Below, piece by piece: positions 32,689 through 45,165 of a DNA stretch of 64,000 nt. Within the stretch, counting starts at the first letter, position 1. Each line of letters starts with the position of its first letter. The stretch is from Dokdonia pacifica (lineage in GTDB: Bacteria > Bacteroidota > Bacteroidia > Flavobacteriales > Flavobacteriaceae): NCBI RefSeq assembly GCF_900188275.1, contig NZ_FZNY01000005.1, positions 310,001-374,000 on the forward strand, given 5' to 3'. The notes under the pieces are model-generated. The model did not search any database, had not been told where the DNA came from, and saw only the letters and a list, made by a program, of their open reading frames with translations. The translations under genes and the position numbers were made by a program.

Positions 32689-35640
32689 TTATTTTACAAT
32701 AATTCGTGCTGTTCTATAAGTTTGAGGATTTTGACTTCCTAAACGAATAATGTATACTCCTGATGCCATAGCACTCATGTCTAATGTCATTCCAAATCCA
32801 GTGCTAGTCTTAGCAATTGGTTTGTATTTAAGCTGTTGTCCAAGTGTATTATAAACAGCTATAAACAAACGATCATCAAAACTTGTTGTGAAATTAATAT
32901 CAAAAATATTATTATCTAATGTACTTACAACGAGTCCTCCATCATCAATAGCTTGCTCTTCTGCGCTTAATGTTCCAGTGATGTTTGCAGTATAATCATT
33001 AGTTCTACCAAATTGTAAATCTCCACAAGGATCTAATACATCTCCAGCTGTACTTTCATCTTCACCTCTAAGTCTCATTCTGTGTTCTCCCGCTGTTACT
33101 GCAGGGATATTTTCAAAATCAACTGTAAATGCAAAATCTGTGTTTGCAGAAGCAACAAATTCATTTGCTACTAATTCTTCAGTTTCAAAAATATTATTAT
33201 CATTAAAATCTATCCATAGTGCAAATACAGAATCATTGAATCCCATCTGTAACACCCCTTCAAACGGGTTACTATCTAGTGCAAAATTAAATACGATATC
33301 TGTATCATCACTGTATCCATCTGGAGAATTTCCACAGTTTGTAGTAATATCTTGATCTGCTAATGCAAATTCTGTAACACCGTCATCAAATCCAGCACAA
33401 TTAGATGTTGGTTGACAAATAGTATTTGTTATTGTTACACAGGTAGTGTCATTAGAAGTGTCTGAATCACCAGTAAGGTTTGTAGATGCACAAAGATTAT
33501 ACTCTTGGAATCCAGATACATCTATAGTTTGAGCAAATGTATAATCAACGGTTTCTCCAGAAGAGATAGTTCCTGTAAATGTTTCTGTTGTAACCGCTCC
33601 ATCTAAATCAAAAGATACTTCAAAACCAGTTTGATCTGCAGATCCAAAATTTTGTATGGTAATGATTACATCTTCAGCATCTGTAAGGTTTTCTCCAGTC
33701 TCTGGAGCTACAATAGCAACAACACCTACATCATCCATTGATAAATGCTTTACTTCTTTTGTCATACAATCATTACAATCAAACTCATCACCAGCTAGTG
33801 AAGTACAAACTGTAATACTATATTCTTGTCCTTCTACCGATAAATCTAAAGTTTGTGTAAATGTATACGTTACTGAAGCTCCTGGAGCAATAGGTCCTGC
33901 TACAACTTCATTGGCAACTACTGTCCCATCAAGACTTAAAGATATAGGAACATTTGAAATTTCTTGAATTCCAAAGTTTCTTACCTGTACCTCTACAGTC
34001 TCTGTAGTAGTTAATGCGCCATCAGATGGAGATAAAATCATACCTGAACCAGCATCTAAATCTAATCCATTTGAAAGGTTAAATGATGCAACACGAGTTA
34101 CCCATGAATTATTAGAAGCGAAATACTCTGCAGTATGCCAGAAAGTAAAATTATCTGGATCCATTGATAATTGTGAATAATCACCAAATCTATTGGTAGT
34201 TGTTTGTACACCTACTCCATCTACAATAGTCTCTTCAGGAATGGTCATTTCTCCTAATGGATCATCTTGATATCTTCCTGTGTATGCTATTCCTACTGGT
34301 GTATCTGGTCCTCCAACATTAAAAGCTAGACCAATATTACCTTGCTCATCTATAGCTCCACTTCCCATAAAACGACTATTTCCGTCTGCTGGTGCATATG
34401 TTCCTTCTTGATAAACGTCCCAATCATCGGTATCAGAATCTCTTAATTCAATCCAACGAACTCCTGCTGTAGAATTATCACCTTCTACATCAACATTAAA
34501 AGTAACTAGCCAAGAATTATGATCTGCAAACGATCTATAATGAGCAGCATAAGAAATTACTCCCGTAATCATGTCAATACGTTGTGCTGCTCCAGGCTGT
34601 TGCAATTCACCAGCACCAAAAGGAGCTAGAAAAGAATCAAAAGGAGCTACAGGGATTTCAAGTGGTGCTGATACTGAAGAATTTCCTGGTGTAACAAAAT
34701 CAATATCAAGTTCCCAAACTTTTAAATGATCAAAAGCTGCTCCCCAACCATCATCCTGTAAATACGTGATATATCCTGGACTAGAAGGATCAAAGTCTGT
34801 TCCTGTAAGGTATGCTGGTTCAGGACTAAATACTGTATTCGGATTATTAATCACACCTGGTAATGTAAACCCTAAAATTTGTGGGTCTGCTCCTCCTGCA
34901 AGCATAACATCTCTTTCAAGAGCAAATATATTTTGTCCTGATTTATTAGCTGTCATATAATATGCATCATGCCAAACAGCATAATGAGGATAATCTGGAA
35001 AAGAACTTAATGGAAATTCATATAAGAAATAAGCGCCTGTGGGATCTGGTGTTTCAGAAACAGCAATCGCTAGTCCATTATTTGAAAGATTAAATTGACT
35101 CACAAACCAACGATCTGCAAGTTGATCATACATAATAATTGGATCTCCGCTATTTTGACCATCACCAATAAAGTTACCTAAAGAGGTAGGTCCAGCAAGT
35201 ACATTACCAGATTTATCAAAAATTTTAACCACTACATTTACAGCATTTACATAGTGATTCGGTCCAACAGCTCCTGATGGATCTGGTGGAAGCGCTCCTC
35301 CTTCTGCAGCAGTAATTCCAACAAAGTTTTCGCCATTATTACAACTAGCTCTCTGCTGAAATGCAGCAGTAGCAGCGTTATTAATTGCAGATTGCCTTAA
35401 AGGGTCTCCATCTAAAGGAAGTGCATTTTCGACTTCATATCCATTTACAGGAAAATTATTAGGTACAATTCTTAAATCGGACTTACCTTCATGTGCTTCT
35501 GAAATAACAGGAAAGTCGCGTAAGGGTATCGTTTTGCCAAGGAAAGTTCCTTGTCCAATTGACTCAGGTGCCGCAGCATCTTGAGCAAACAAGTTAAGCG
35601 TGGCAAATAATGCCAACGCAAGTAAGATAGTTTTTTTCAT
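32689..35640 (-). CDS. large T9SS cargo protein with CARDB-like and GEVED domains (paralogue A)
   Basis: The 983-residue exported protein has a signal peptide (1-20, ending LFA) and a conserved ~480-residue N-terminal domain with PPDPSGAVGPNHYVNAVN, IIMYDQLADRWFVSQF and RWIELRDSDTDDWDVYQEG. Two CARDB-like beta domains (about 550-750), a GEVED domain (about 775-900) and a T9SS type A sorting domain (about 905-983, ending ARIIVK) follow. No catalytic residues are recognisable. It is the tandem paralogue of the next gene. The start is the ATG at 35638-35640; the frame extends upstream but without signal-peptide character. Upstream lies the AGGTAGGAAA element shared with two other cargo genes. 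Confidence 0.92.
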   Translation of the reverse strand: MKKTILLALALFATLNLFAQDAAAPESIGQGTFLGKTIPLRDFPVISEAHEGKSDLRIVPNNFPVNGYEVENALPLDGDPLRQSAINNAATAAFQQRASCNNGENFVGITAAEGGALPPDPSGAVGPNHYVNAVNVVVKIFDKSGNVLAGPTSLGNFIGDGQNSGDPIIMYDQLADRWFVSQFNLSNNGLAIAVSETPDPTGAYFLYEFPLSSFPDYPHYAVWHDAYYMTANKSGQNIFALERDVMLAGGADPQILGFTLPGVINNPNTVFSPEPAYLTGTDFDPSSPGYITYLQDDGWGAAFDHLKVWELDIDFVTPGNSSVSAPLEIPVAPFDSFLAPFGAGELQQPGAAQRIDMITGVISYAAHYRSFADHNSWLVTFNVDVEGDNSTAGVRWIELRDSDTDDWDVYQEGTYAPADGNSRFMGSGAIDEQGNIGLAFNVGGPDTPVGIAYTGRYQDDPLGEMTIPEETIVDGVGVQTTTNRFGDYSQLSMDPDNFTFWHTAEYFASNNSWVTRVASFNLSNGLDLDAGSGMILSPSDGALTTTETVEVQVRNFGIQEISNVPISLSLDGTVVANEVVAGPIAPGASVTYTFTQTLDLSVEGQEYSITVCTSLAGDEFDCNDCMTKEVKHLSMDDVGVVAIVAPETGENLTDAEDVIITIQNFGSADQTGFEVSFDLDGAVTTETFTGTISSGETVDYTFAQTIDVSGFQEYNLCASTNLTGDSDTSNDTTCVTITNTICQPTSNCAGFDDGVTEFALADQDITTNCGNSPDGYSDDTDIVFNFALDSNPFEGVLQMGFNDSVFALWIDFNDNNIFETEELVANEFVASANTDFAFTVDFENIPAVTAGEHRMRLRGEDESTAGDVLDPCGDLQFGRTNDYTANITGTLSAEEQAIDDGGLVVSTLDNNIFDINFTTSFDDRLFIAVYNTLGQQLKYKPIAKTSTGFGMTLDMSAMASGVYIIRLGSQNPQTYRTARIIVK

Positions 35641-35666
35641 AAAGTGTAGTTTTCTTAGTTTAAGAA

Positions 35667-35692
35667 CAACTAAGATATGCATTTTCCTACCT
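35667..35692 (-). promoter_or_regulatory. shared AGGTAGGAAA-N9-TTAGTTG upstream element (copy A)
   Basis: On the minus strand AGGTAGGAAA (35692-35683), then 9 nt, then TTAGTTG (35673-35667). It begins 52 bp upstream of the start codon of paralogue A. The same arrangement precedes two other T9SS cargo genes. Confidence 0.6.
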
Positions 35693-35773
35693 ATATACAT
35701 AATATATTTATATCTATTACGATTTCAGGCACCAAACACCTTATTTCACCTTAAACACCTTGTTTTAAAAAGT

Positions 35774-35820
35774 TTACACAACAAAAAATGCGGGCATTGC
35801 CCGCATTTTTTGTTGTGTAA
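35774..35820 (-). terminator. very long perfect terminator hairpin between the paralogues
   Basis: 22-bp perfect arms (35774-35795 and 35799-35820) with an ATT loop; the inner part is ATGCGGGC/GCCCGCAT followed by a T6 run. It lies just after the stop codon of paralogue B. Confidence 0.9.
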
Positions 35821-35828
35821 CTCTAATT

Positions 35829-38810
35829 CTATTTCACTAAAATCTTTTTTGTTATAAATCGACTTGAACCTGTAGTCATCATTTTAACAAAATAAACACC
35901 AGAAGCTACATTAGACATATCTAACGCCACATTAAATGTATTTCCTTCTCTTTGTACTGGTTTATATTTTAATTGTTGTCCTAGTGAATTATAAACACCA
36001 ATAAATATAGTTCCATCTACTACTGAAGTTAATTGCACGTCAAATTTCTCATTGTCTAAAGTCGAAATTATAAATTCTGAATTTGCAAATGCAATATCAT
36101 CTACTCCTAATGTATCATCAATAATCACTGTATAATCTTGAACTTCTCCAAAAGAAAAACTAGAACATGCTTCATTGATATCACCTGCAGCAGATGTATC
36201 TATCGCTTTTGCTCTTAAGATATGACTTCCTAATGGCGATCCAACAGGTATAGTCAAAGTAAAATCTTCAAGAACTCCTACTTGTTGGAAAAATTCTCCA
36301 GCAATGAGTTGTTCTGAATCTTCAAAATCACCATTATCATTAAAATCAATCCAGACAGATAAAGCTTCTACACCAGGGCCACCTGGCCAGTTTTGCTGTG
36401 CTTGTAATATGTACTCATTTTGACCATCTACATTACTCAATGTAGTAGATAAGTCTGTTCTATTTGCATATCCTTGAGGTCCTCCTTCAGGTTCTGTATT
36501 ACAACCATTCCCACCATCATCAGCATTAATAGTATTTAATACAAATTGCTTGATTCCATCTATATTACAACCTTGAGTAGCCATAGGCATACAGATATTT
36601 AATAATTCAATACTTGTCTCATCATTAGATGGATCTTGATCTCCAGCTAAATTTGTTCTTGCAACAATCGTATGATTTCCAGCTACTGTGACATCTGCTT
36701 GTGTTGTAAATGTATAGCTCACTGTAGAGTTTGCTGGAACGTTTCCTGTAAATGTTTCTACTACTGGAGCTTCTGCATCTAAGATATATTGAACCTCAAA
36801 ATTAGATTGTGCAACTCCTCCAAAATTAGTAATATCTACAGTTACGTCTTCTACTCCTAACATACCTGAAGTAGGTGACGTAATAGCACTTACACCTAAA
36901 TCATCTGCCAATAAATGTGTTACTTCAATAGATGCGTCATCATTTACAGGTTGTTGATCTCCATCTAATAATGTATTGGCTGAAATTACATACGTTTGAC
37001 CTTCTATATTTAAATCTAATGTAGCTGTAAACATATAATTTACAGATTCTCCACCAGGTATAGTTCCTGTAAATGTTTCGTTAGCAATAAGAGCGCCATC
37101 TAATCTTAATTCTAAAGGAATATTAGATTGATCATCTGTCCCAAAGTTTCTTATAATAATTTCTACAGTTTCTGAATCGGTAAGATCACCAGTCTCTGGA
37201 GATATAAAACCGTTTACACCTACATCTGTAGCAAATCCATCTGAAAGTCTAAAAGAAGCAATTCGTGTAGCCCAAACATTATTTGATGAAAAATACTGAC
37301 TCGTATGCCAAAATGTAAATTCATTTGGATCTAATGTCATATGCGCATAATCTCCAAAACGATTTGAATTCGTTTGTACGCCTGGTCCATCAAATATCAC
37401 ATTTTCTTCTACTGTCATTTGTCCTAAAGGATCTGAAGCAAATCGACCTGTATGACGAATACCAACAGGCATATCACCACTACCAATATTATAAGCAAGT
37501 CCTATGTTACCTTGAGCATCCATAGCAGCACTACTCATAAAACGACTATTTCCATCATCTGGCGCAAACGTTCCTTCTTGAAATAATGTCCATGTATCAT
37601 CTGCATCTGTATTTCGAAGTTCTATCCATCTAATCCCTGATGTATCATTTCCATCCACATCTACATTAAATGTAATTAACCAAGAATTATGATCTTCAAA
37701 AACTCTGTAATTTGCCATATAAGATATGATACCACCTTGACCTGCTAATTCTTGAGCAGTTCCTGGCTGATCAATTTCTCCAACTCCAAAAGCAGCAAAT
37801 AACGAATCAAATGCATCTACAGGTATTTCTTGTGGGTTTGCAGAGATCGTAGAGTTTCCAATATCATCCCAATCAATAACAGCCTCCCAAATCAACAATT
37901 GATCTGTATCTATATTTCCATTCCATGAATCATCCTGTAAATACACGAAAAAACCTGGTGAGTTTTCTGGTGTTGCAAAACCTGTTAGGTTTGCAGATGC
38001 AGCGCTAAAAATAGTAGTTGGATTTGCAAATTGTCCTGTAAGATTAAGTCCTACTATTTGTGCATCTGGATCTCCAGCTAGCATAGCATCACGCTCCAAT
38101 ACAAAAACTTCTCTTGGGTTAAATCCACCACCACCACCATTACCATTGGTAGTAAGATAATAGCCATCTGGCCATATAGAGTAATGTGGATAATCTTCAA
38201 ATTGCCCATTAAGAATTTCATAAAGGTTATATGCTCCCGCAGGATCTGAAGTCTCTGAAATAGCAATTAATAAAGAATTTGCTCCCTGTCCAAACTCGCT
38301 CACTAACCACCTATCGGCTAGTTGATCATATAAAACTATTGGATCTCCACTATTAGAAGGGTTTCCTAAAAAAGTTCCTAAGGCTACAGGACCAACCTCT
38401 AAATCACCATCTTTCGAAAAAATTGCAATAGAAGAGTTAACAGCTTGCACATAATGATTAGGTCCTACTGCTCCTGTAGGATCAGGAGGAACAAACCCTG
38501 TTGCACCTATTCCTATAAAATTAGCTTCAATAGCATCTGGTGCTAATAATGGTCCCATTTCTCTTTGTATTGTAGCTTCAGGATCAGACTGACCTTCTAC
38601 TAAATTATCAAAAGAGCCTTCATAACGGTTGGGTACAATAATAAGTTCATCTACGCCAAAGTCATGATTTTGCGCAGTTGGAAGATCTCTAAGTGCTTGT
38701 GTCTTCCCTTTAAAAACAGCTTGAGAAACCTGACTAGGTCCATTGGTCTCTTGTGCAAACATCCCTATACTTAGAAAGAAGATTGCAATAAAAAATAATT
38801 GTTTTCTCAT
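35829..38810 (-). CDS. large T9SS cargo protein with CARDB-like and GEVED domains (paralogue B)
   Basis: The 993-residue protein has the same architecture as paralogue A: signal peptide (1-19, ending MFA), N-terminal domain with PPDPTGAVGPNHYVQAVN, IVLYDQLADRWLVSEF and RWIELRNTDADDTWTLFQEG, two CARDB-like repeats (about 555-750), GEVED (about 770-905, FGEVQDYTVII) and a T9SS type A sorting domain (about 915-993, ending KKILVK). The two genes are in tandem, each with its own copy of the AGGTAGGAAA upstream element and separated by a terminator. This points to a duplication that carried the promoter along. The function is unknown; binding or adhesion is possible. Confidence 0.92.
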   Translation of the reverse strand: MRKQLFFIAIFFLSIGMFAQETNGPSQVSQAVFKGKTQALRDLPTAQNHDFGVDELIIVPNRYEGSFDNLVEGQSDPEATIQREMGPLLAPDAIEANFIGIGATGFVPPDPTGAVGPNHYVQAVNSSIAIFSKDGDLEVGPVALGTFLGNPSNSGDPIVLYDQLADRWLVSEFGQGANSLLIAISETSDPAGAYNLYEILNGQFEDYPHYSIWPDGYYLTTNGNGGGGGFNPREVFVLERDAMLAGDPDAQIVGLNLTGQFANPTTIFSAASANLTGFATPENSPGFFVYLQDDSWNGNIDTDQLLIWEAVIDWDDIGNSTISANPQEIPVDAFDSLFAAFGVGEIDQPGTAQELAGQGGIISYMANYRVFEDHNSWLITFNVDVDGNDTSGIRWIELRNTDADDTWTLFQEGTFAPDDGNSRFMSSAAMDAQGNIGLAYNIGSGDMPVGIRHTGRFASDPLGQMTVEENVIFDGPGVQTNSNRFGDYAHMTLDPNEFTFWHTSQYFSSNNVWATRIASFRLSDGFATDVGVNGFISPETGDLTDSETVEIIIRNFGTDDQSNIPLELRLDGALIANETFTGTIPGGESVNYMFTATLDLNIEGQTYVISANTLLDGDQQPVNDDASIEVTHLLADDLGVSAITSPTSGMLGVEDVTVDITNFGGVAQSNFEVQYILDAEAPVVETFTGNVPANSTVSYTFTTQADVTVAGNHTIVARTNLAGDQDPSNDETSIELLNICMPMATQGCNIDGIKQFVLNTINADDGGNGCNTEPEGGPQGYANRTDLSTTLSNVDGQNEYILQAQQNWPGGPGVEALSVWIDFNDNGDFEDSEQLIAGEFFQQVGVLEDFTLTIPVGSPLGSHILRAKAIDTSAAGDINEACSSFSFGEVQDYTVIIDDTLGVDDIAFANSEFIISTLDNEKFDVQLTSVVDGTIFIGVYNSLGQQLKYKPVQREGNTFNVALDMSNVASGVYFVKMMTTGSSRFITKKILVK

Positions 38811-38836
38811 ATAATGGTTGATTTCTTTACTTTAAA

Positions 38837-38863
38837 ACAATTTAAAGATACAATTTCCTACCT
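38837..38863 (-). promoter_or_regulatory. shared AGGTAGGAAA-N9-TAAATTG upstream element (copy B)
   Basis: On the minus strand AGGTAGGAAA (38863-38854), 9 nt, then TAAATTG (38844-38838). It begins 53 bp upstream of the start codon of paralogue B. Confidence 0.65.
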
Positions 38864-39041
38864 GTAAACGTGTATTATACATATTGAATCTAATTAATTC
38901 AAATCATCACAAATACATACATATTAACAGGCATCAAAAAAATCTGTTTATAATATATACAACCTATGCGTTATTCATCGTGTGTATTTTGCTTAAAAAA
39001 TGTAAATTTGCGCCTTTAAATAACATCACATACTTACCTGT

Positions 39042-42000
39042 ATGATTTACTTCTTCGGAAATCCAAAAGAAACTGTATTTGCAGTTCAAAGTAATCAAGA
39101 TTTAACTCAAGAAGATAGCCAAAAGCTAGTGTGGCTTTTTGGCAATCAACCTAAGATAGAAGCGTCCACAATAGACGCTTTTTTTATTGGACCAAGAGCA
39201 ACAATGATAACACCATGGAGTACAAATGCTGTTGAAATCACTCAAAATATGGGGATTAAAAACATCATTCGTATAGAAAAGTTTTCTTCCTCTACAGAGG
39301 ATGATACTTCTTTTGATCCCATGATTTCTCAAAAATACACTGTACTTAGTCAAGATATTTTCACTTTTGACATAGAACCAGAACCTATTATTGAGCTTGA
39401 TGATATTAGAACGTATAATGAACAAGAAGGACTCGCTTTAAGTGAAGAAGAAGTTGTTTATTTGGAAGAAGTATCCAAAAAAATAGGTAGAAAACTTACA
39501 GATTCGGAAGTTTTTGGATTTAGTCAAGTAAACTCAGAACACTGTCGTCACAAGATTTTTAATGGAACCTTTGTGATAGATGGAAAAGAAATGCCCTCTT
39601 CTTTGTTTAAACTTATTAAAAAAACGTCTGCAGAAAATCCGAATACTATCGTATCTGCTTATAAAGATAATGTAGCATTTACTGAAGGACCTCGGGTTAC
39701 GCAATTTGCACCAAAAACTGCCGATAAGCCAGATTTCTATCAAGAAACAGAATTTGACAGTGTCATTTCGCTTAAAGCGGAAACCCATAATTTCCCAACA
39801 ACAGTTGAGCCTTTTAATGGAGCTGCTACAGGATCTGGAGGTGAAATTAGAGATCGACTTGCAGGAGGGAAAGGATCTTTACCACTAGCAGGCACAGCAG
39901 TATATATGACGCCATATTCAAGACTACTGGAAGATAGACCTTGGGAACAAAATATGCCCGCTAGAAAATGGCTATACCAAAATCCAATAGATTTACTGAT
40001 TAAAGCTTCTAATGGAGCATCAGACTTTGGAAATAAATTTGGACAACCCTTAATTACAGGATCAGTACTCACCTTTGAACATGAAGAAGAAGGACGTAGG
40101 TTAGGATACGATAAAGTAATTATGCAAGCTGGTGGAATAGGTTATGGAAAAAAAGATCAAGCCCTTAAAGACACTCCTAACAATGGTGACAAAATAGTCA
40201 TCTTAGGAGGAGAAAACTACCGTATTGGTATGGGAGGTGCTGCAGTATCATCTGCAGATACTGGTGCTTTTAGCTCTGGTATTGAATTAAATGCCATACA
40301 ACGTTCTAATCCAGAAATGCAAAAACGTGCTGCAAATGCCATACGAGGCCTTGTAGAAAGTGAAGAAAACCCTATTGTTTCTATACATGATCATGGAGCT
40401 GGAGGCCACTTAAATTGCCTTTCTGAACTTGTAGAAGAAACTGGAGGTCATATAGATTTGGATCAACTTCCTGTAGGTGATAAAACACTCTCTGCCAAAG
40501 AAATTATTGGTAATGAATCACAAGAACGCATGGGACTTGTGATTGGTGAAAAAGACATGGAAACACTTAAGCGTATTTCTGAACGTGAGCGTTCACCAAT
40601 GTACGAAGTAGGAAATGTTACCAATGATCATCGTTTTGCTTTTGTGAGTAAAACTACTGGGGAATCTCCAATGAATCTTGCATTAGAAGACATGTTTGGT
40701 AGTTCTCCTAAAACAGTAATGACTGATACAACGATTGATCGCGCATATAAAAACCCGACCTATCAATTAGAAAACTTTCATGATTATCTAGAACAAGTAC
40801 TACAATTAGAAGCTGTGGCTTGTAAAGATTGGCTTACTAATAAAGTAGACCGTTGCGTAGGAGGTCGTGTCGCAAAACAACAATGTGCTGGTCCTATACA
40901 ACTCCCTCTTAATAATGTAGGAGTTATGGCACTAGATTATAAAAGCACTGAAGGTATTGCTACTTCTATAGGACACTCTCCCGTAAGCGGGCTTATCGAT
41001 CCTGTAGCTGGAAGTAAAAATAGTATTGCAGAAGCTTTAACCAATATTGTATGGGCACCACTTACTGATAATTTAAAATCTGTGAGTCTATCTGCAAATT
41101 GGATGTGGCCTTGTAAAAACGAAGGTGAAGATGCTCGTTTATATAAAGCAGTACAAGCTATTTCTGACTTTGCAATAAATTTAGGTATCAATGTGCCTAC
41201 TGGAAAGGATAGCCTTTCTATGAAACAAAAGTATCCTGATGGAGATGTAATTGCACCAGGAACTGTTGTTATCTCTGCTGCTGGAAGCTGTAATAATATC
41301 AATAAAGTTGTAGAGCCTGTTCTTAAAAAAACCAGAGGAAATATTTATTATATAAATATGTCTCAAGACACCTATAAATTAGGCGGATCTAGTTTTGCAC
41401 AAGTATGTAAAACCATCGGTAATGAGGCACCTTCTATTATAGATGATTCCGCTTTCGCGAAAGCGTTTAATACCTTACAATATCTTATTAAAAATGATTT
41501 GATTTTGGCAGGACATGACGTGGCTAGTGGAGGACTTATCACCACCTTATTAGAAATGTGTTTTGCAGATACTGAATTAGGCGCAACTATAGATCTTTCC
41601 GATTTAGGAGAGCAAGATCTTATCAAAGTATTGTTTGCTGAAAACGCTGGAGTAGTATTTCAAGCCAAAGATGACTCCGTAGAAAGCATACTCTCTGAGC
41701 AAGGAATTCCATTTTCAAAAATTGGATCAGTGACACACTCAGATACATTAGAAATTAAAAATCACGGTGTAGAACTTGGACTTACTGTTTCTTCTTTAAG
41801 AGATACTTGGTATAAAACGTCTTATCTATTAGACAGTAAACAAACAGCAAATAATCTTGCTAAAGAGCGTTTTGATAATTATAAACTACAACCTTTAAGA
41901 TATATATTCCCAGGTCATTTTACAGGAAAGCTTCCTCAAATAGATGCTAGCAAACCTCGTCCAAAAGCGGCTATTTTAAGAGAGAAAGGGAGTAATTCTG

Positions 42001-42707
42001 AAAGAGAAATGGCAAATGCTATGTATCTAGCTGGTTTTGATGTAAAAGACGTTCATATGACAGATTTAATATCTGGAAGAGAAACATTGGAAGATATTCA
42101 ATTTATAGGTGCTGTTGGTGGTTTTTCTAATAGTGATGTACTAGGATCTGCAAAAGGTTGGGCTGGAGCTTTCTTATATAATGAAAAAGCAAATAAAGCT
42201 TTAAAAAACTTTTTTGCTAGAGAAAATACAATGTCTATCGGGATTTGTAATGGATGTCAATTATTCTTAGAACTAGATCTCATCAATCCTGAACATGAAA
42301 GACTTGCTAAAATGACTTATAATGATTCCAAAAAACACGAAAGTAGTTTTACAAGTGTTACCATAGGAAATACAAATAGTATCATGATGTCTACCTTAAT
42401 AGGCACAACAATGGGTGTATGGATAAGTCATGGAGAAGGGAAATTTAACCTCCCTATGGAAGAGTGGCATTATAAAATAGTAGCTAAATATGAGTATGCA
42501 AATTATCCAGCAAACCCTAATGGTTCTGATTATGATACTGCAATGCTTTGTGATATAACGGGTAGACACTTAGTAACTATGCCACATATAGAGCGCTCAA
42601 TATTTCCTTGGAACTGGGCACATTATATAGATGGAAAGCATGATGAAGTATCACCGTGGATAGAAGCATTTGTAAATGCTCGTGAATGGATTGAAAAAAA
42701 TAGTTAG
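39042..42707 (+). CDS. purL: phosphoribosylformylglycinamidine synthase, single-chain
   Basis: The enzyme converts FGAR to FGAM with glutamine and ATP in purine synthesis (EC 6.3.5.3). The 1221-residue chain is the large single-polypeptide form (E. coli 1295): an N-terminal PurS-like part, two AIR-synthase repeats (motifs HCRHKIFNG, AETHNFPTTVEPFNGAATGSGG and HDHGAGGHLNCLSE) and a C-terminal glutaminase domain with GICNGCQ (nucleophile Cys 1069) and the late HGEGKF. A TAAATTTG -7 match lies at 39003-39010. A palindrome copy encodes SAFAKAF at about residue 805, in the second AIR-synthase half. Confidence 0.97.
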   Translation: MIYFFGNPKETVFAVQSNQDLTQEDSQKLVWLFGNQPKIEASTIDAFFIGPRATMITPWSTNAVEITQNMGIKNIIRIEKFSSSTEDDTSFDPMISQKYTVLSQDIFTFDIEPEPIIELDDIRTYNEQEGLALSEEEVVYLEEVSKKIGRKLTDSEVFGFSQVNSEHCRHKIFNGTFVIDGKEMPSSLFKLIKKTSAENPNTIVSAYKDNVAFTEGPRVTQFAPKTADKPDFYQETEFDSVISLKAETHNFPTTVEPFNGAATGSGGEIRDRLAGGKGSLPLAGTAVYMTPYSRLLEDRPWEQNMPARKWLYQNPIDLLIKASNGASDFGNKFGQPLITGSVLTFEHEEEGRRLGYDKVIMQAGGIGYGKKDQALKDTPNNGDKIVILGGENYRIGMGGAAVSSADTGAFSSGIELNAIQRSNPEMQKRAANAIRGLVESEENPIVSIHDHGAGGHLNCLSELVEETGGHIDLDQLPVGDKTLSAKEIIGNESQERMGLVIGEKDMETLKRISERERSPMYEVGNVTNDHRFAFVSKTTGESPMNLALEDMFGSSPKTVMTDTTIDRAYKNPTYQLENFHDYLEQVLQLEAVACKDWLTNKVDRCVGGRVAKQQCAGPIQLPLNNVGVMALDYKSTEGIATSIGHSPVSGLIDPVAGSKNSIAEALTNIVWAPLTDNLKSVSLSANWMWPCKNEGEDARLYKAVQAISDFAINLGINVPTGKDSLSMKQKYPDGDVIAPGTVVISAAGSCNNINKVVEPVLKKTRGNIYYINMSQDTYKLGGSSFAQVCKTIGNEAPSIIDDSAFAKAFNTLQYLIKNDLILAGHDVASGGLITTLLEMCFADTELGATIDLSDLGEQDLIKVLFAENAGVVFQAKDDSVESILSEQGIPFSKIGSVTHSDTLEIKNHGVELGLTVSSLRDTWYKTSYLLDSKQTANNLAKERFDNYKLQPLRYIFPGHFTGKLPQIDASKPRPKAAILREKGSNSEREMANAMYLAGFDVKDVHMTDLISGRETLEDIQFIGAVGGFSNSDVLGSAKGWAGAFLYNEKANKALKNFFARENTMSIGICNGCQLFLELDLINPEHERLAKMTYNDSKKHESSFTSVTIGNTNSIMMSTLIGTTMGVWISHGEGKFNLPMEEWHYKIVAKYEYANYPANPNGSDYDTAMLCDITGRHLVTMPHIERSIFPWNWAHYIDGKHDEVSPWIEAFVNAREWIEKNS
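41451..41464. repeat. GCTTTCGCGAAAGC palindrome copy, in purL
   Basis: Perfect 14-mer, extending to CGCTTTCGCGAAAGCG at 41450-41465, read as A-F-A-K-A. Confidence 0.9.
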
Positions 42708-42721
42708 AAAATGTAATTTCT

Positions 42722-42747
42722 AGGTAGGAAATCCTACTATTAAATTG
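42722..42747 (+). promoter_or_regulatory. shared AGGTAGGAAA-N9-TAAATTG upstream element (copy C)
   Basis: AGGTAGGAAA (42722-42731), 9 nt, TAAATTG (42741-42747). It begins 62 bp upstream of the carboxypeptidase start. In this copy GTAGGA-AA-TCCTAC (42724-42737) also forms a perfect 6-bp dyad. Confidence 0.65.
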
Positions 42748-42783
42748 TTTTTATACTATACTACAATAAAACCTCCTTGATTA

Positions 42784-45165
42784 ATGAAAAATATTTACTT
42801 GATTATATTCTTACTTTCTTTTTTTGCTATATCTGCTCAAGAAAAACTAGAAACATACCAACGTGCTAAAATATCTTTTAATCAAGATAGTGACCTATTT
42901 AGATTACAACAGCTTGATATTCCAGCTGATCATGGAATTAAGAAGAAAGATCACTTCATCATTTCAGATTTTTCTGTTAGTGAATTAGAACGTGCTCGTA
43001 TAAATGGTTTTCAAGTAGAAGTACTTATTGAGGATATAAGAGCACATGCTGCAGAACAAAATAGATTAAACACTCCTCTACAGAGAAATGCAAGCTGTAG
43101 TGAAGATACAGGTGCAGTCTACCCTACTCCAGATAACTTCAATTTAGGATCTTTAGGCGGATATATGACATATCAAGAATTTCTAGATGAATTAGATGAT
43201 ATGCATGACCTATACCCTAATTTAATTACTGCCAGAGATGGAATAAGTGATTTCTTAACTGAAGGACAAGCTGACAACTCTGTGACACCATCTATAGGAG
43301 ACAATAGAATAGAATGGGTTAAAATAAGTGATAACCCTAATGAGACTAATGAAGGGGAAGCACAAATACTCTATACGGGTATTCATCACGCTCGAGAATT
43401 TGCTACATTATCAGAGTTAATTTTCTATATGTGGTATTTATTAGAAAACTATGAAACTGATGCTGAAGTACAGAGTATCGTAAATAACACAGAACTTTAT
43501 TTTGTTCCTGTTGTAAATCCTGATGGATATTTATACAATCAAGTATTGGATCCTACAAATGGGCAAGGATTCTGGCGTAAGAATAGAAAAAATGGTAATG
43601 GAGTAGATAACAATCGTAACTATGATTACCACATTAATGGTGATCCAAATAATGGTTCTTGGGGAGGACCAGGCGCTTCAAATAATCCAGGTTCTGAAGT
43701 ATATCACGGCCCTTCTGCATTTTCTGAAGTAGAAAACCAAGCTATCAAATGGTTTGTCGAGCAACACAATTTTGTAATTGCATTAAATAATCACTCGTTC
43801 GGAAGATTATTATACTACCCATTTGGTTATGCAGATGTAGCAACGCCTGATGATGCACTATATCAAGGAATAGGAGCTGAACTAACATCATTAAATGGTT
43901 ATAACGCATTAAGAGATTCTCCTTTCTCTGGAGATAGTGATGATTTTATGTATGGTACGGTAGGAACGCATGACAAGATATTTGCATTTACACCTGAAAT
44001 AAATAATTCTTTCTATCCGCCTTCAAATCAAATTGAAGATATTGCTAGAGAGATGATGTTCTTGAATCTTACAGCTGCAAAAATGACTAATAATTTTGCA
44101 ACATTATCTGATACTTCTTCTCTATTTATTGATACAACTACACCCGATGCTTCTTTTAATATTAGACGTTTAGGCATCAATGGATCTGGAGATTTTACAG
44201 TAAGCATAAATCCAGTATCTAGTAATATTATAAGTGTAGATACTCCTGCTACATTTTCTGGTCTTGCAACATTAGAAGATCAAGACGGTAGTATTGGATT
44301 TACCTTATCAAATAGCATTGTAGCAGGCGATATCGTAGACTATGAACTTGTCGTTAATAATGGCTCTTTTGATACATCAATTTTTATTTCTAAGATATTT
44401 GGAGAATCAGAACAGGTATTCTTTGATGATGGAAGTAGTTCAACAACAAACTTTGAGACAAATGATTGGGGAATTACAGACGATTTCTTTGAGTCGGCAC
44501 CAACTTCTATCACTGATTCTCCAAATGGAAATTATAGCAATGATGAAAATTCATCTATTGTAATAAATACACCTGTAGATTTAACAGATGCATTATCTGC
44601 TTCTGTATCATTTTATGCTAGATGGGAGATTGAAAACACATGGGATTATGTACAGTTTGAAATCTCAACTGATAATGGTTCGACTTGGATTCCTCAGTGT
44701 GGAAACTTTACAACAGAGGGAACAAACATACAACCCCTTGGTGAGCCACTATACGATGGTACTCAATCTGAGTTTGTATTAGAAGAAATTTCTCTTTCAG
44801 ACTATCTTGGAGAAGAAATTATCGCTAGATTTCAATTAGTTTCTGATGACCAAGTAAGAAGAGATGGTTTTTACTTTGATGATCTAGAGTTTCTAGTAGT
44901 AAACGAAGAGGAACTATCTGTAGGAGAAAGTATTCTTGAAAATTTCACTGTTTTTCCAAATCCTGTAAAAGATATTTTAACCGTACAAGCTCCACAAGGA
45001 GCATATACTACAACGGTATACAATATACAAGGACAGCGTGTTTCTGCAACAACAGAACACACTGGAAGTGCTCAGTTAGATTATAGCAGCTATGCAAATG
45101 GTATTTACTTTGTAAAAATAGCTTCAAACAATGCATTAAAGACTATTAAAGTGATTAAAGAATAA
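42784..45165 (+). CDS. secreted M14 zinc carboxypeptidase with T9SS sorting domain
   Basis: The 793-residue exported peptidase has a signal peptide (1-19, ending ISA) and a propeptide-like region (about 20-105). The M14 domain (about 125-425) has zinc ligands His 202 and Glu 205 in IHHAREF and His 337 in NNHSFG, with the catalytic Glu 405 in FTPEINNSF. Beta domains (about 440-700, with a jelly-roll-like stretch SASVSFYARWEIENTWDYVQFE) and a T9SS type A sorting domain (about 715-793, VFPNPVKDILTV and GIYFVKI) follow. It probably trims peptides outside the cell. It carries the AGGTAGGAAA element upstream. Confidence 0.94.
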   Translation: MKNIYLIIFLLSFFAISAQEKLETYQRAKISFNQDSDLFRLQQLDIPADHGIKKKDHFIISDFSVSELERARINGFQVEVLIEDIRAHAAEQNRLNTPLQRNASCSEDTGAVYPTPDNFNLGSLGGYMTYQEFLDELDDMHDLYPNLITARDGISDFLTEGQADNSVTPSIGDNRIEWVKISDNPNETNEGEAQILYTGIHHAREFATLSELIFYMWYLLENYETDAEVQSIVNNTELYFVPVVNPDGYLYNQVLDPTNGQGFWRKNRKNGNGVDNNRNYDYHINGDPNNGSWGGPGASNNPGSEVYHGPSAFSEVENQAIKWFVEQHNFVIALNNHSFGRLLYYPFGYADVATPDDALYQGIGAELTSLNGYNALRDSPFSGDSDDFMYGTVGTHDKIFAFTPEINNSFYPPSNQIEDIAREMMFLNLTAAKMTNNFATLSDTSSLFIDTTTPDASFNIRRLGINGSGDFTVSINPVSSNIISVDTPATFSGLATLEDQDGSIGFTLSNSIVAGDIVDYELVVNNGSFDTSIFISKIFGESEQVFFDDGSSSTTNFETNDWGITDDFFESAPTSITDSPNGNYSNDENSSIVINTPVDLTDALSASVSFYARWEIENTWDYVQFEISTDNGSTWIPQCGNFTTEGTNIQPLGEPLYDGTQSEFVLEEISLSDYLGEEIIARFQLVSDDQVRRDGFYFDDLEFLVVNEEELSVGESILENFTVFPNPVKDILTVQAPQGAYTTTVYNIQGQRVSATTEHTGSAQLDYSSYANGIYFVKIASNNALKTIKVIKE

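What the first reader, a model, noticed from the sequence alone, without database searches (positions are those of the whole stretch)
35667..42747. Shared AGGTAGGAAA-N9-T(A/T)A(A/G)TTG element upstream of three T9SS cargo genes
The two cargo paralogues (minus strand) and the M14 carboxypeptidase (plus strand) each have AGGTAGGAAA followed after exactly 9 nt by TAAATTG or TTAGTTG, beginning 52, 53 and 62 bp before the start codon. The carboxypeptidase is not homologous to the paralogues, so common descent of the genes alone does not explain it. The two-block layout with fixed spacing looks like a promoter for an alternative sigma factor, or an operator. The T9SS is known in some species to be controlled by PorXY and an ECF sigma factor; a link here is inference.
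Basis: partly seen in the sequence, partly recalled or inferred. Interest (0 to 1): 0.75.

Follow-up and report, generated by a model that had tools for sequence, protein, structure and literature searches.

The report
Surface-signalling sigma promoter before exported proteins
Three secreted-protein genes in this marine bacterium share a promoter-like element that matches the one in front of a conserved sigma factor/anti-sigma/receptor switch, so the cell probably turns them on together in response to something sensed at its surface.

Summary
The repeat is real: AGGTAGGAAA-N9-T(A/T)A(A/G)TTG occurs exactly three times in the 5.5 Mb genome, 52-62 bp before three T9SS cargo genes. Its conserved parts are GGTAGGA, 16 nt, TGTT. 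The same core precedes the fecR-type anti-sigma gene of an ECF sigma/fecR/TonB-receptor locus on another contig, and in 77 of 79 related loci. In 149 family genomes, all 51 with this receptor type carry the extended element, against 16 of the other 98. In 30 relatives, 25 of 27 sites away from that locus precede exported proteins. Sister loci with a changed sigma recognition helix have another -35 box and the same -10. I conclude that it is the promoter of a FecI-type, surface-signalling ECF sigma factor. It is not a general T9SS switch: about 6 of 101 cargo genes carry it, and nothing here links it to PorXY/SigP. Against: only one of the three window copies matches the extended form (TGTT-N-TA); orthologues keep the core in about half of cases; one-mismatch sites in this genome barely exceed the control; there are no transcription-start or mutant data, and the signal is unknown.

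The parts
35665..35692 (-). Promoter element 1: -35 box GGTAGGA (35691-35685), 16-nt spacer, -10 box TGTT (35668-35665)
32689..35640 (-). T9SS cargo gene 1 (983 aa, signal peptide MKKTILLALALFATLNLFAQ; CTD at window 32710-32913)
38836..38863 (-). Promoter element 2: -35 box GGTAGGA (38862-38856), 16-nt spacer, -10 box TGTT (38839-38836)
35829..38810 (-). T9SS cargo gene 2 (993 aa, GEVED domain, weak CARDB match, Por_Secre_tail), paralogue of gene 1 (48% identical)
42722..42749 (+). Promoter element 3: -35 box GGTAGGA (42723-42729), 16-nt spacer, -10 box TGTT (42746-42749)
42784..45165 (+). M14 carboxypeptidase with T9SS CTD (793 aa)

Best explanation
Each element is a -35/-10 promoter read by the FecI-type ECF sigma factor encoded on contig C21 of the same genome (sigma, fecR, TonB-dependent receptor; G000:C21 about 910760-914533). 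The receptor has an extra N-terminal domain that I take to be the one that touches the anti-sigma. By analogy with E. coli FecA-FecR-FecI, a ligand at the outer membrane would change the receptor, FecR would release or activate the sigma, and RNA polymerase would then transcribe fecR-receptor (feedback), a divergent lipoprotein gene and a small set of exported proteins. In this genome that set includes the three window cargo genes and probably an M36 peptidase, a DUF1028 protein and a diheme-cytochrome-like lipoprotein. Shown by sequence: the shared element, its conservation at the sigma locus, its co-occurrence with the receptor, its placement before exported genes, and a -35 box that changes with sigma region 4.2. 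Inferred: transcription from the element, sigma identity, signal flow and ligand.
For: (1) At the home locus the core lies between sigma and fecR, and a second copy faces the divergent lipoprotein gene. (2) fecR was found in 79 of 80 related loci; before it GGTAGGA-N16-TGTT is exact in 68, has one mismatch in 9, and is poor or missing in 2 (L093, L161), mostly 45-50 bp before fecR. My ORF rule also found the sigma gene just upstream in 69 of the 79. (3) Of 149 family genomes, 51 of 51 with the full-length receptor type carry the exact GGTAGGA-N16-TGTT-N-TA (124 hits against 4 for the reversed pattern); 16 of 98 others do (28 against 19); Fisher p = 4e-26 (counts copied by hand into). (4) In 30 genomes chosen because they have the locus, 70 hits against 3 for the reversed control (my count of its rows). 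27 lie away from the sigma locus, outside ORFs of 120 aa or more; 26 have a same-strand ORF downstream and 25 of these code for an exported protein by a simple rule, against 43 of 194 control genes. (5) Cargo orthologues in the genus or family keep the core (at most one mismatch) with different spacers: 9 of 18 M14 rows and 11 of 18 closer P0001-family rows, this genome's genes included. (6) Six loci (one in this genome) whose sigma helix reads VVEYR or VIEYR lack GGTAGG (five have TCAGGA/G, one TAAGGA) but keep TGTT; those reading AVEKR or AIEKR have GTAGGG. (7) The 16-nt spacing is usual for ECF promoters (recalled); TGTT near -10 is reported for two promoters of a Bacteroides ECF sigma (PMC12596196, passages).
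Against: No transcription-start, binding or mutant data. ECF sigma genes without FecR were not surveyed in this genome. Elements 1 and 3 lack the TA after TGTT. With one mismatch allowed the genome has 89 core sites against 79 for the reversed control, so only exact sites stand out. The two closest P0001 orthologues (L247, L248, 81% identical) lack the element, as do 9 of 18 M14 rows. Eight element-bearing genomes without the receptor type show no listed receptor beside the site (capped list). One exact core site lies inside a gene (C12:350761).
Confidence: 0.87

Rival explanations
1. The element is a promoter for a SigP-type ECF sigma acting with PorXY, a general T9SS regulon.
For: Three T9SS cargo genes share it, and SigP controls T9SS component genes in Porphyromonas gingivalis (PMC7712824, passages).
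Against: Of 98 further cargo genes only 3 score 8 bits or more. None of the 6 exact genome sites with an identified downstream gene precedes a T9SS machinery gene. The element is tied to the FecR locus. SM6 promoters, which include T9SS machinery genes of F. psychrophilum, have a CGT box (PMC9723704; gene table).
Confidence: 0.04
2. It is an operator for a DNA-binding activator or repressor rather than a sigma promoter.
For: A fixed two-block layout can also be a regulator site.
Against: Orientation: 26 of 27 scattered sites in the 30 genomes have a same-strand ORF downstream; the other strand was not scored. The -35 half changes with sigma region 4.2 while the -10 half stays. Whether another promoter lies nearby was not tested.
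Confidence: 0.05
3. It is a housekeeping or SM5-type promoter (TAnnTTGY of F. psychrophilum); two of the three window copies read TAAATTGT.
For: Literal match of two copies.
Against: The third copy and orthologue sites such as L249-L255 lack the TAnnTTG, and fecR sites have mostly CTGTT. GGTAGGA is the best conserved block and is not mentioned for SM5 in the parts of the paper seen.
Confidence: 0.03
4. Common descent or chance: duplicated upstream DNA or a coincidence.
For: Two of the three genes are paralogues.
Against: The M14 gene has different domains from the two paralogues. Spacers differ. 0.10 matches expected in the window against 4 seen. The core is kept in part of the orthologues.
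Confidence: 0.01

Closest known systems
E. coli FecI-FecR-FecA ferric citrate surface signalling (PMC9249621, passages seen)
   Same: ECF sigma, FecR-family anti-sigma and TonB-dependent receptor; two-block promoter recognised by the sigma
   Different: E. coli FecI is reported to control a single promoter, before fecA. Here the promoter sits before fecR and also before scattered exported genes. No iron gene was seen among the targets inspected.
P. aeruginosa surface-signalling ECF sigma that regulates virulence factors (PMC2729926, title and start of abstract in the listing only)
   Same: Receptor, anti-sigma and sigma used to control more than uptake genes
   Different: Another phylum; promoter sequence not compared
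PorXY-SigP control of the T9SS in P. gingivalis (PMC7712824, passages) and motif SM6 of F. psychrophilum (PMC9723704, passages and part 1 of section 15)
   Same: ECF sigma linked to type IX secretion in Bacteroidota
   Different: They act on T9SS machinery genes. SM6 has a CGT -10 box. Here cargo and lipoproteins are the targets and the -10 is TGTT.
Bacteroides thetaiotaomicron PM2-like ECF promoters (PMC7366714, PMC12596196, passages)
   Same: TGTT near -10 reported for two promoters assigned to an ECF sigma
   Different: Near-palindromic motif with -10 and -30 elements, linked to oxidative stress; GGTAGGA not mentioned in the passages seen

Membership tests
ECF sigma factor with FecR-type regulator | Sigma with regions 2 and 4, beside a FecR-domain gene | tested here: met
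   Pfam Sigma70_r2 and Sigma70_r4_2; FecR and FecR_C. The best NCBIfam model, TIGR02985, is below its cut-off, 110 against 126 bits; the FecI equivalog NF041727 is far below.
FecI-FecR-FecA surface signalling | TonB-dependent receptor with an N-terminal signalling domain encoded next to fecR | tested here: met
   Plug and barrel, plus an N-terminal match to PF16344 at residues 31-93. That this is the signalling (STN-like) domain is recalled, not tested.
FecI-FecR-FecA surface signalling | Ligand sensing, FecR contact and sigma activation | not testable with these tools
   Needs experiment
ECF-dependent promoter | -35 and -10 boxes with fixed spacing, feedback on the sigma locus | tested here: met
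   GGTAGGA-N16-TGTT before fecR in 77 of 79 loci with at most one mismatch
ECF-dependent promoter | Transcription starts a few nt after the -10 box | not testable with these tools
   No RNA data for this organism
SigP/PorXY T9SS regulon | Acts on T9SS genes as a class | tested here: not met
   Cargo: 3 of 98 further genes at 8 bits or more. Machinery: no exact site seen before one, promoters not scored directly.
SM5 promoters of F. psychrophilum | TAnnTTGY box | tested here: not met
   Literal match in 2 of 3 window copies, not kept in the orthologue and fecR sites

The most novel reading that the evidence does not exclude
A family-wide surface-signalling regulon of Flavobacteriaceae: a receptor/anti-sigma/ECF-sigma switch that, instead of inducing its own receptor alone, controls scattered secretome genes (lipoproteins, T9SS cargo including M14, M36 and M12B peptidases, and perhaps small RNAs). 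Targets turn over between genera while the promoter stays fixed. The receptor may sense peptides or cell-surface debris, so that secreted peptidases feed the signal.
Probability: 0.45. Interest if true: 0.75.

Novelty: new variant of a known kind. Interest (0 to 1): 0.62.

Why it matters
It gives a DNA signature, GGTAGGA-N16-TGTT, that ties a conserved FecI-type switch, for which I found no study, to concrete target genes in many Flavobacteriaceae. It shows one route by which individual T9SS cargo genes could be regulated apart from the secretion machinery. It also offers a natural set of sister sigma factors whose -35 box changes with the recognition helix.

Tried and rejected
A first relaxed search used a spacer one base too short. 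Its 23 hits all had 2 mismatches; two preceded an ORF, neither secreted, so it served as a spacing control. With 3 mismatches the genome-wide count of the right spacing is 468 against 478 for the reversed control, so weak hits were not used.

The idea of a general T9SS cargo regulon was tested on 101 of 103 cargo genes (2 dropped for lack of a start) and rejected. With a PWM trained on 74 fecR sites outside Dokdonia, the three window genes score the maximum. At 8 bits or more the other 98 give 3 hits; eight spacing-shifted PWMs give 0 (seven) or 1 (one), the reversed PWM 0, the reverse-complement PWM 1, and 2 of 300 column-permuted PWMs reach 3. The third hit (M12B peptidase) differs at two positions of the pattern and may be chance. 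Start codons were chosen by a simple hydrophobicity rule.

The receptor threshold in the co-occurrence count (query from residue 9 or earlier, 933 bits or more) was set after seeing the list. G096 (948 bits, match from residue 105, has the element) and G076 (825 bits, no exact element; GGTAGGG instead) were left outside the set. Relatedness was not corrected for. In the M14 set one row (L224, contig end) was dropped, and the partial, 34-39% identical matches were not used. Most one-mismatch sites were not inspected. Pfam gave no family for L387, L389, L391, L392, L394, L401, L410 and the lipoprotein of L070. Rfam found only a 5S rRNA in L415. Paper searches listed no report of this element or regulon that I recognised; the ECF re-classification paper is not held, so a predicted motif may already be in print.
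Full report
WHAT WAS CLAIMED AND WHAT IS THERE. The three copies of AGGTAGGAAA-N9-T(A/T)A(A/G)TTG are in the sequence at the stated places, 52, 53 and 62 bp before the start codons of two paralogous T9SS cargo genes and an M14 carboxypeptidase. Shuffling gives 0.10 expected matches in the window with up to two mismatches; there are 4, three exact. In the whole 5.52 Mb genome the exact pattern occurs only here. All three proteins have a T9SS type A sorting domain.

FINDING THE FIRST RELATIVES. An exact scan of 397 family genomes found the pattern in 5 genomes including this one. In the four others (G053, G273, G069, G283) it lies at one kind of locus: an ECF sigma gene, a FecR-type anti-sigma gene and a TonB-dependent receptor gene. 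In G053 and G273 it lies between sigma and fecR; in G069 and G283 it lies before sigma and points away from it, towards a divergent gene (in G069 with a lipoprotein start about 400 bp off), and a looser copy precedes fecR. One further hit in G273 (L010) precedes another small secreted protein. With the spacing corrected, the home genome shows two more copies at its own version of the locus: between sigma and fecR, and facing the divergent LamG lipoprotein gene. The genome is Dokdonia-like: the receptor of an uncultured Dokdonia (L088) is 90% identical.

THE PROMOTER. 80 loci encoding the receptor, most of them named Flavobacteriaceae, were collected (the best 80 of 556). fecR was found in 79, and the sigma gene just upstream in 69 of these by a simple ORF rule. 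Before fecR the core GGTAGGA-N16-TGTT is exact in 68, has one mismatch in 9 and is missing or poor in 2 (L093, L161). The profile of 74 non-Dokdonia sites shows GGTAGGA (each letter 0.91 or more), an A/T-rich spacer and TGTTATATA. The spacer at fecR is itself conserved, so those sites are not independent; the next paragraphs use more independent ones.

CO-OCCURRENCE. In 149 family genomes, one per genus, the 51 with the full-length receptor type all contain the exact GGTAGGA-N16-TGTT-N-TA: 124 hits against 4 for the reversed pattern. Of the other 98, 16 have it: 28 hits against 19. Fisher p = 4e-26. Of these 16, eight have a copy close to a second receptor type (read from the coordinates); the other eight, with 9 hits, are within what the control gives. 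Phylogeny is not corrected for.

TARGETS IN OTHER GENERA. In 30 genomes behind named loci there are 70 exact extended hits against 3 for the reversed control. 17 of the 30 show the facing pair at the sigma locus. 27 hits lie elsewhere, none inside an ORF of 120 aa or more. 26 have an ORF downstream, and 25 of those start with a signal peptide or lipoprotein signal by a simple rule, against 43 of 194 neighbouring control genes, p = 1e-13. Two of the 26 ORFs are far away (L403, 588 bp; L412, 411 bp), and L412 is the one not exported. Targets include T9SS type A cargo (L388, L400), large PKD-domain proteins (L390, also CUB; L403), a DUF4382 and a carboxypeptidase-regulatory-like lipoprotein (L386, L405) and a protein near the SO2930 diheme cytochrome family (L394, 288 bits, below its cut-off of 313). 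By eye, L396, L401 and L041 of the home genome resemble L394, so that target recurs.

TARGETS AT HOME. Nine exact core sites: the three window genes, fecR, the divergent lipoprotein, the diheme-like lipoprotein (177 bp away), one inside a gene, and two without an ORF but with a terminator-like hairpin downstream, seen by eye. Base composition gives about two by chance, by my arithmetic. With one mismatch allowed the genome has 89 sites against 79 for the reversed control, so such sites carry little weight. The cargo test adds an M36 peptidase, a DUF1028 protein and, weakly, an M12B peptidase, all with the T9SS domain. So about 6 of 101 cargo genes are candidates. This small set argues against a general T9SS switch. 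Only element 2 of the window fits the extended form with TA after TGTT.

CARGO ORTHOLOGUES. Of 18 full-length M14 rows (this genome's included), 9 keep the core with at most one mismatch 61-80 bp upstream. Of 30 rows of the paralogue family, 11 keep it 51-112 bp upstream, all among the 18 closer ones (E of 2e-201 or better, this genome's two included); 0 of 12 distant ones do. The two nearest orthologues of P0001 lack it, but their neighbouring paralogues have it. The spacers differ between groups, so the core appears to be under selection in part of the genus.

WHICH SIGMA. This genome has two FecR genes. The second, on C18, has TTTCAGGA-N16-TGTT before it, not GGTAGGA. Among 20 sister loci from other genomes, 15 have (A/G)GTAGGG, 4 TCAGGA/G and 1 TAAGGA, all with TGTT. 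The sigma helix of region 4.2 reads AVEKR or AIEKR in the GTAGG groups and VVEYR or VIEYR in the other (19 of these 20 sigmas recovered, L423 missing). That the -35 box follows the recognition helix while TGTT stays is, to me, the best evidence that these are -35 and -10 boxes, not an operator. TGTT near -10 is reported for two promoters of an ECF sigma in Bacteroides thetaiotaomicron, though the motif as a whole was not significant there (PMC12596196, passages).

MECHANISM. Shown: element, locus, co-occurrence, target class, helix-linked change. Inferred from the E. coli Fec system (PMC9249621, passages): ligand, receptor, FecR, sigma, transcription. Starts just after TGTT would leave short leaders of roughly 10-30 nt, in keeping with the 24-nt median reported for F. 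psychrophilum (PMC9723704).

NOVELTY. The parts are of a known kind. A FecI-type switch with a fixed promoter across the family and a scattered set of exported targets, including T9SS cargo, was not found in the searches listed, which cover only the open library.

Noticed in passing
G000:C21:1310737 (L414 5738-5764), G000:C23:439623 (L415 4624-4650), L393 minus strand: Exact core elements with no convincing ORF downstream but, by eye, a terminator-like hairpin roughly 120-215 nt on: candidate small RNAs of the same regulon in Dokdonia.
   Followed up: partly
L067, L070, L071, L411: A gene that I recognise as ffh (signal recognition particle) neighbours the sigma locus in several genera.
   Followed up: no
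L419-L438 and L418: Sigma subtypes with different -35 boxes (GGTAGGA, GTAGGG, TCAGGA) and one -10 box: a natural specificity series.
   Followed up: partly
G000, whole genome: 103 matches to the T9SS type A sorting domain in a 5.5 Mb genome.
   Followed up: no
window 39042-42707: A gene that I recognise as a phosphoribosylformylglycinamidine synthase lies between cargo gene 2 and the carboxypeptidase gene and ends 15 bp before element 3.
   Followed up: no
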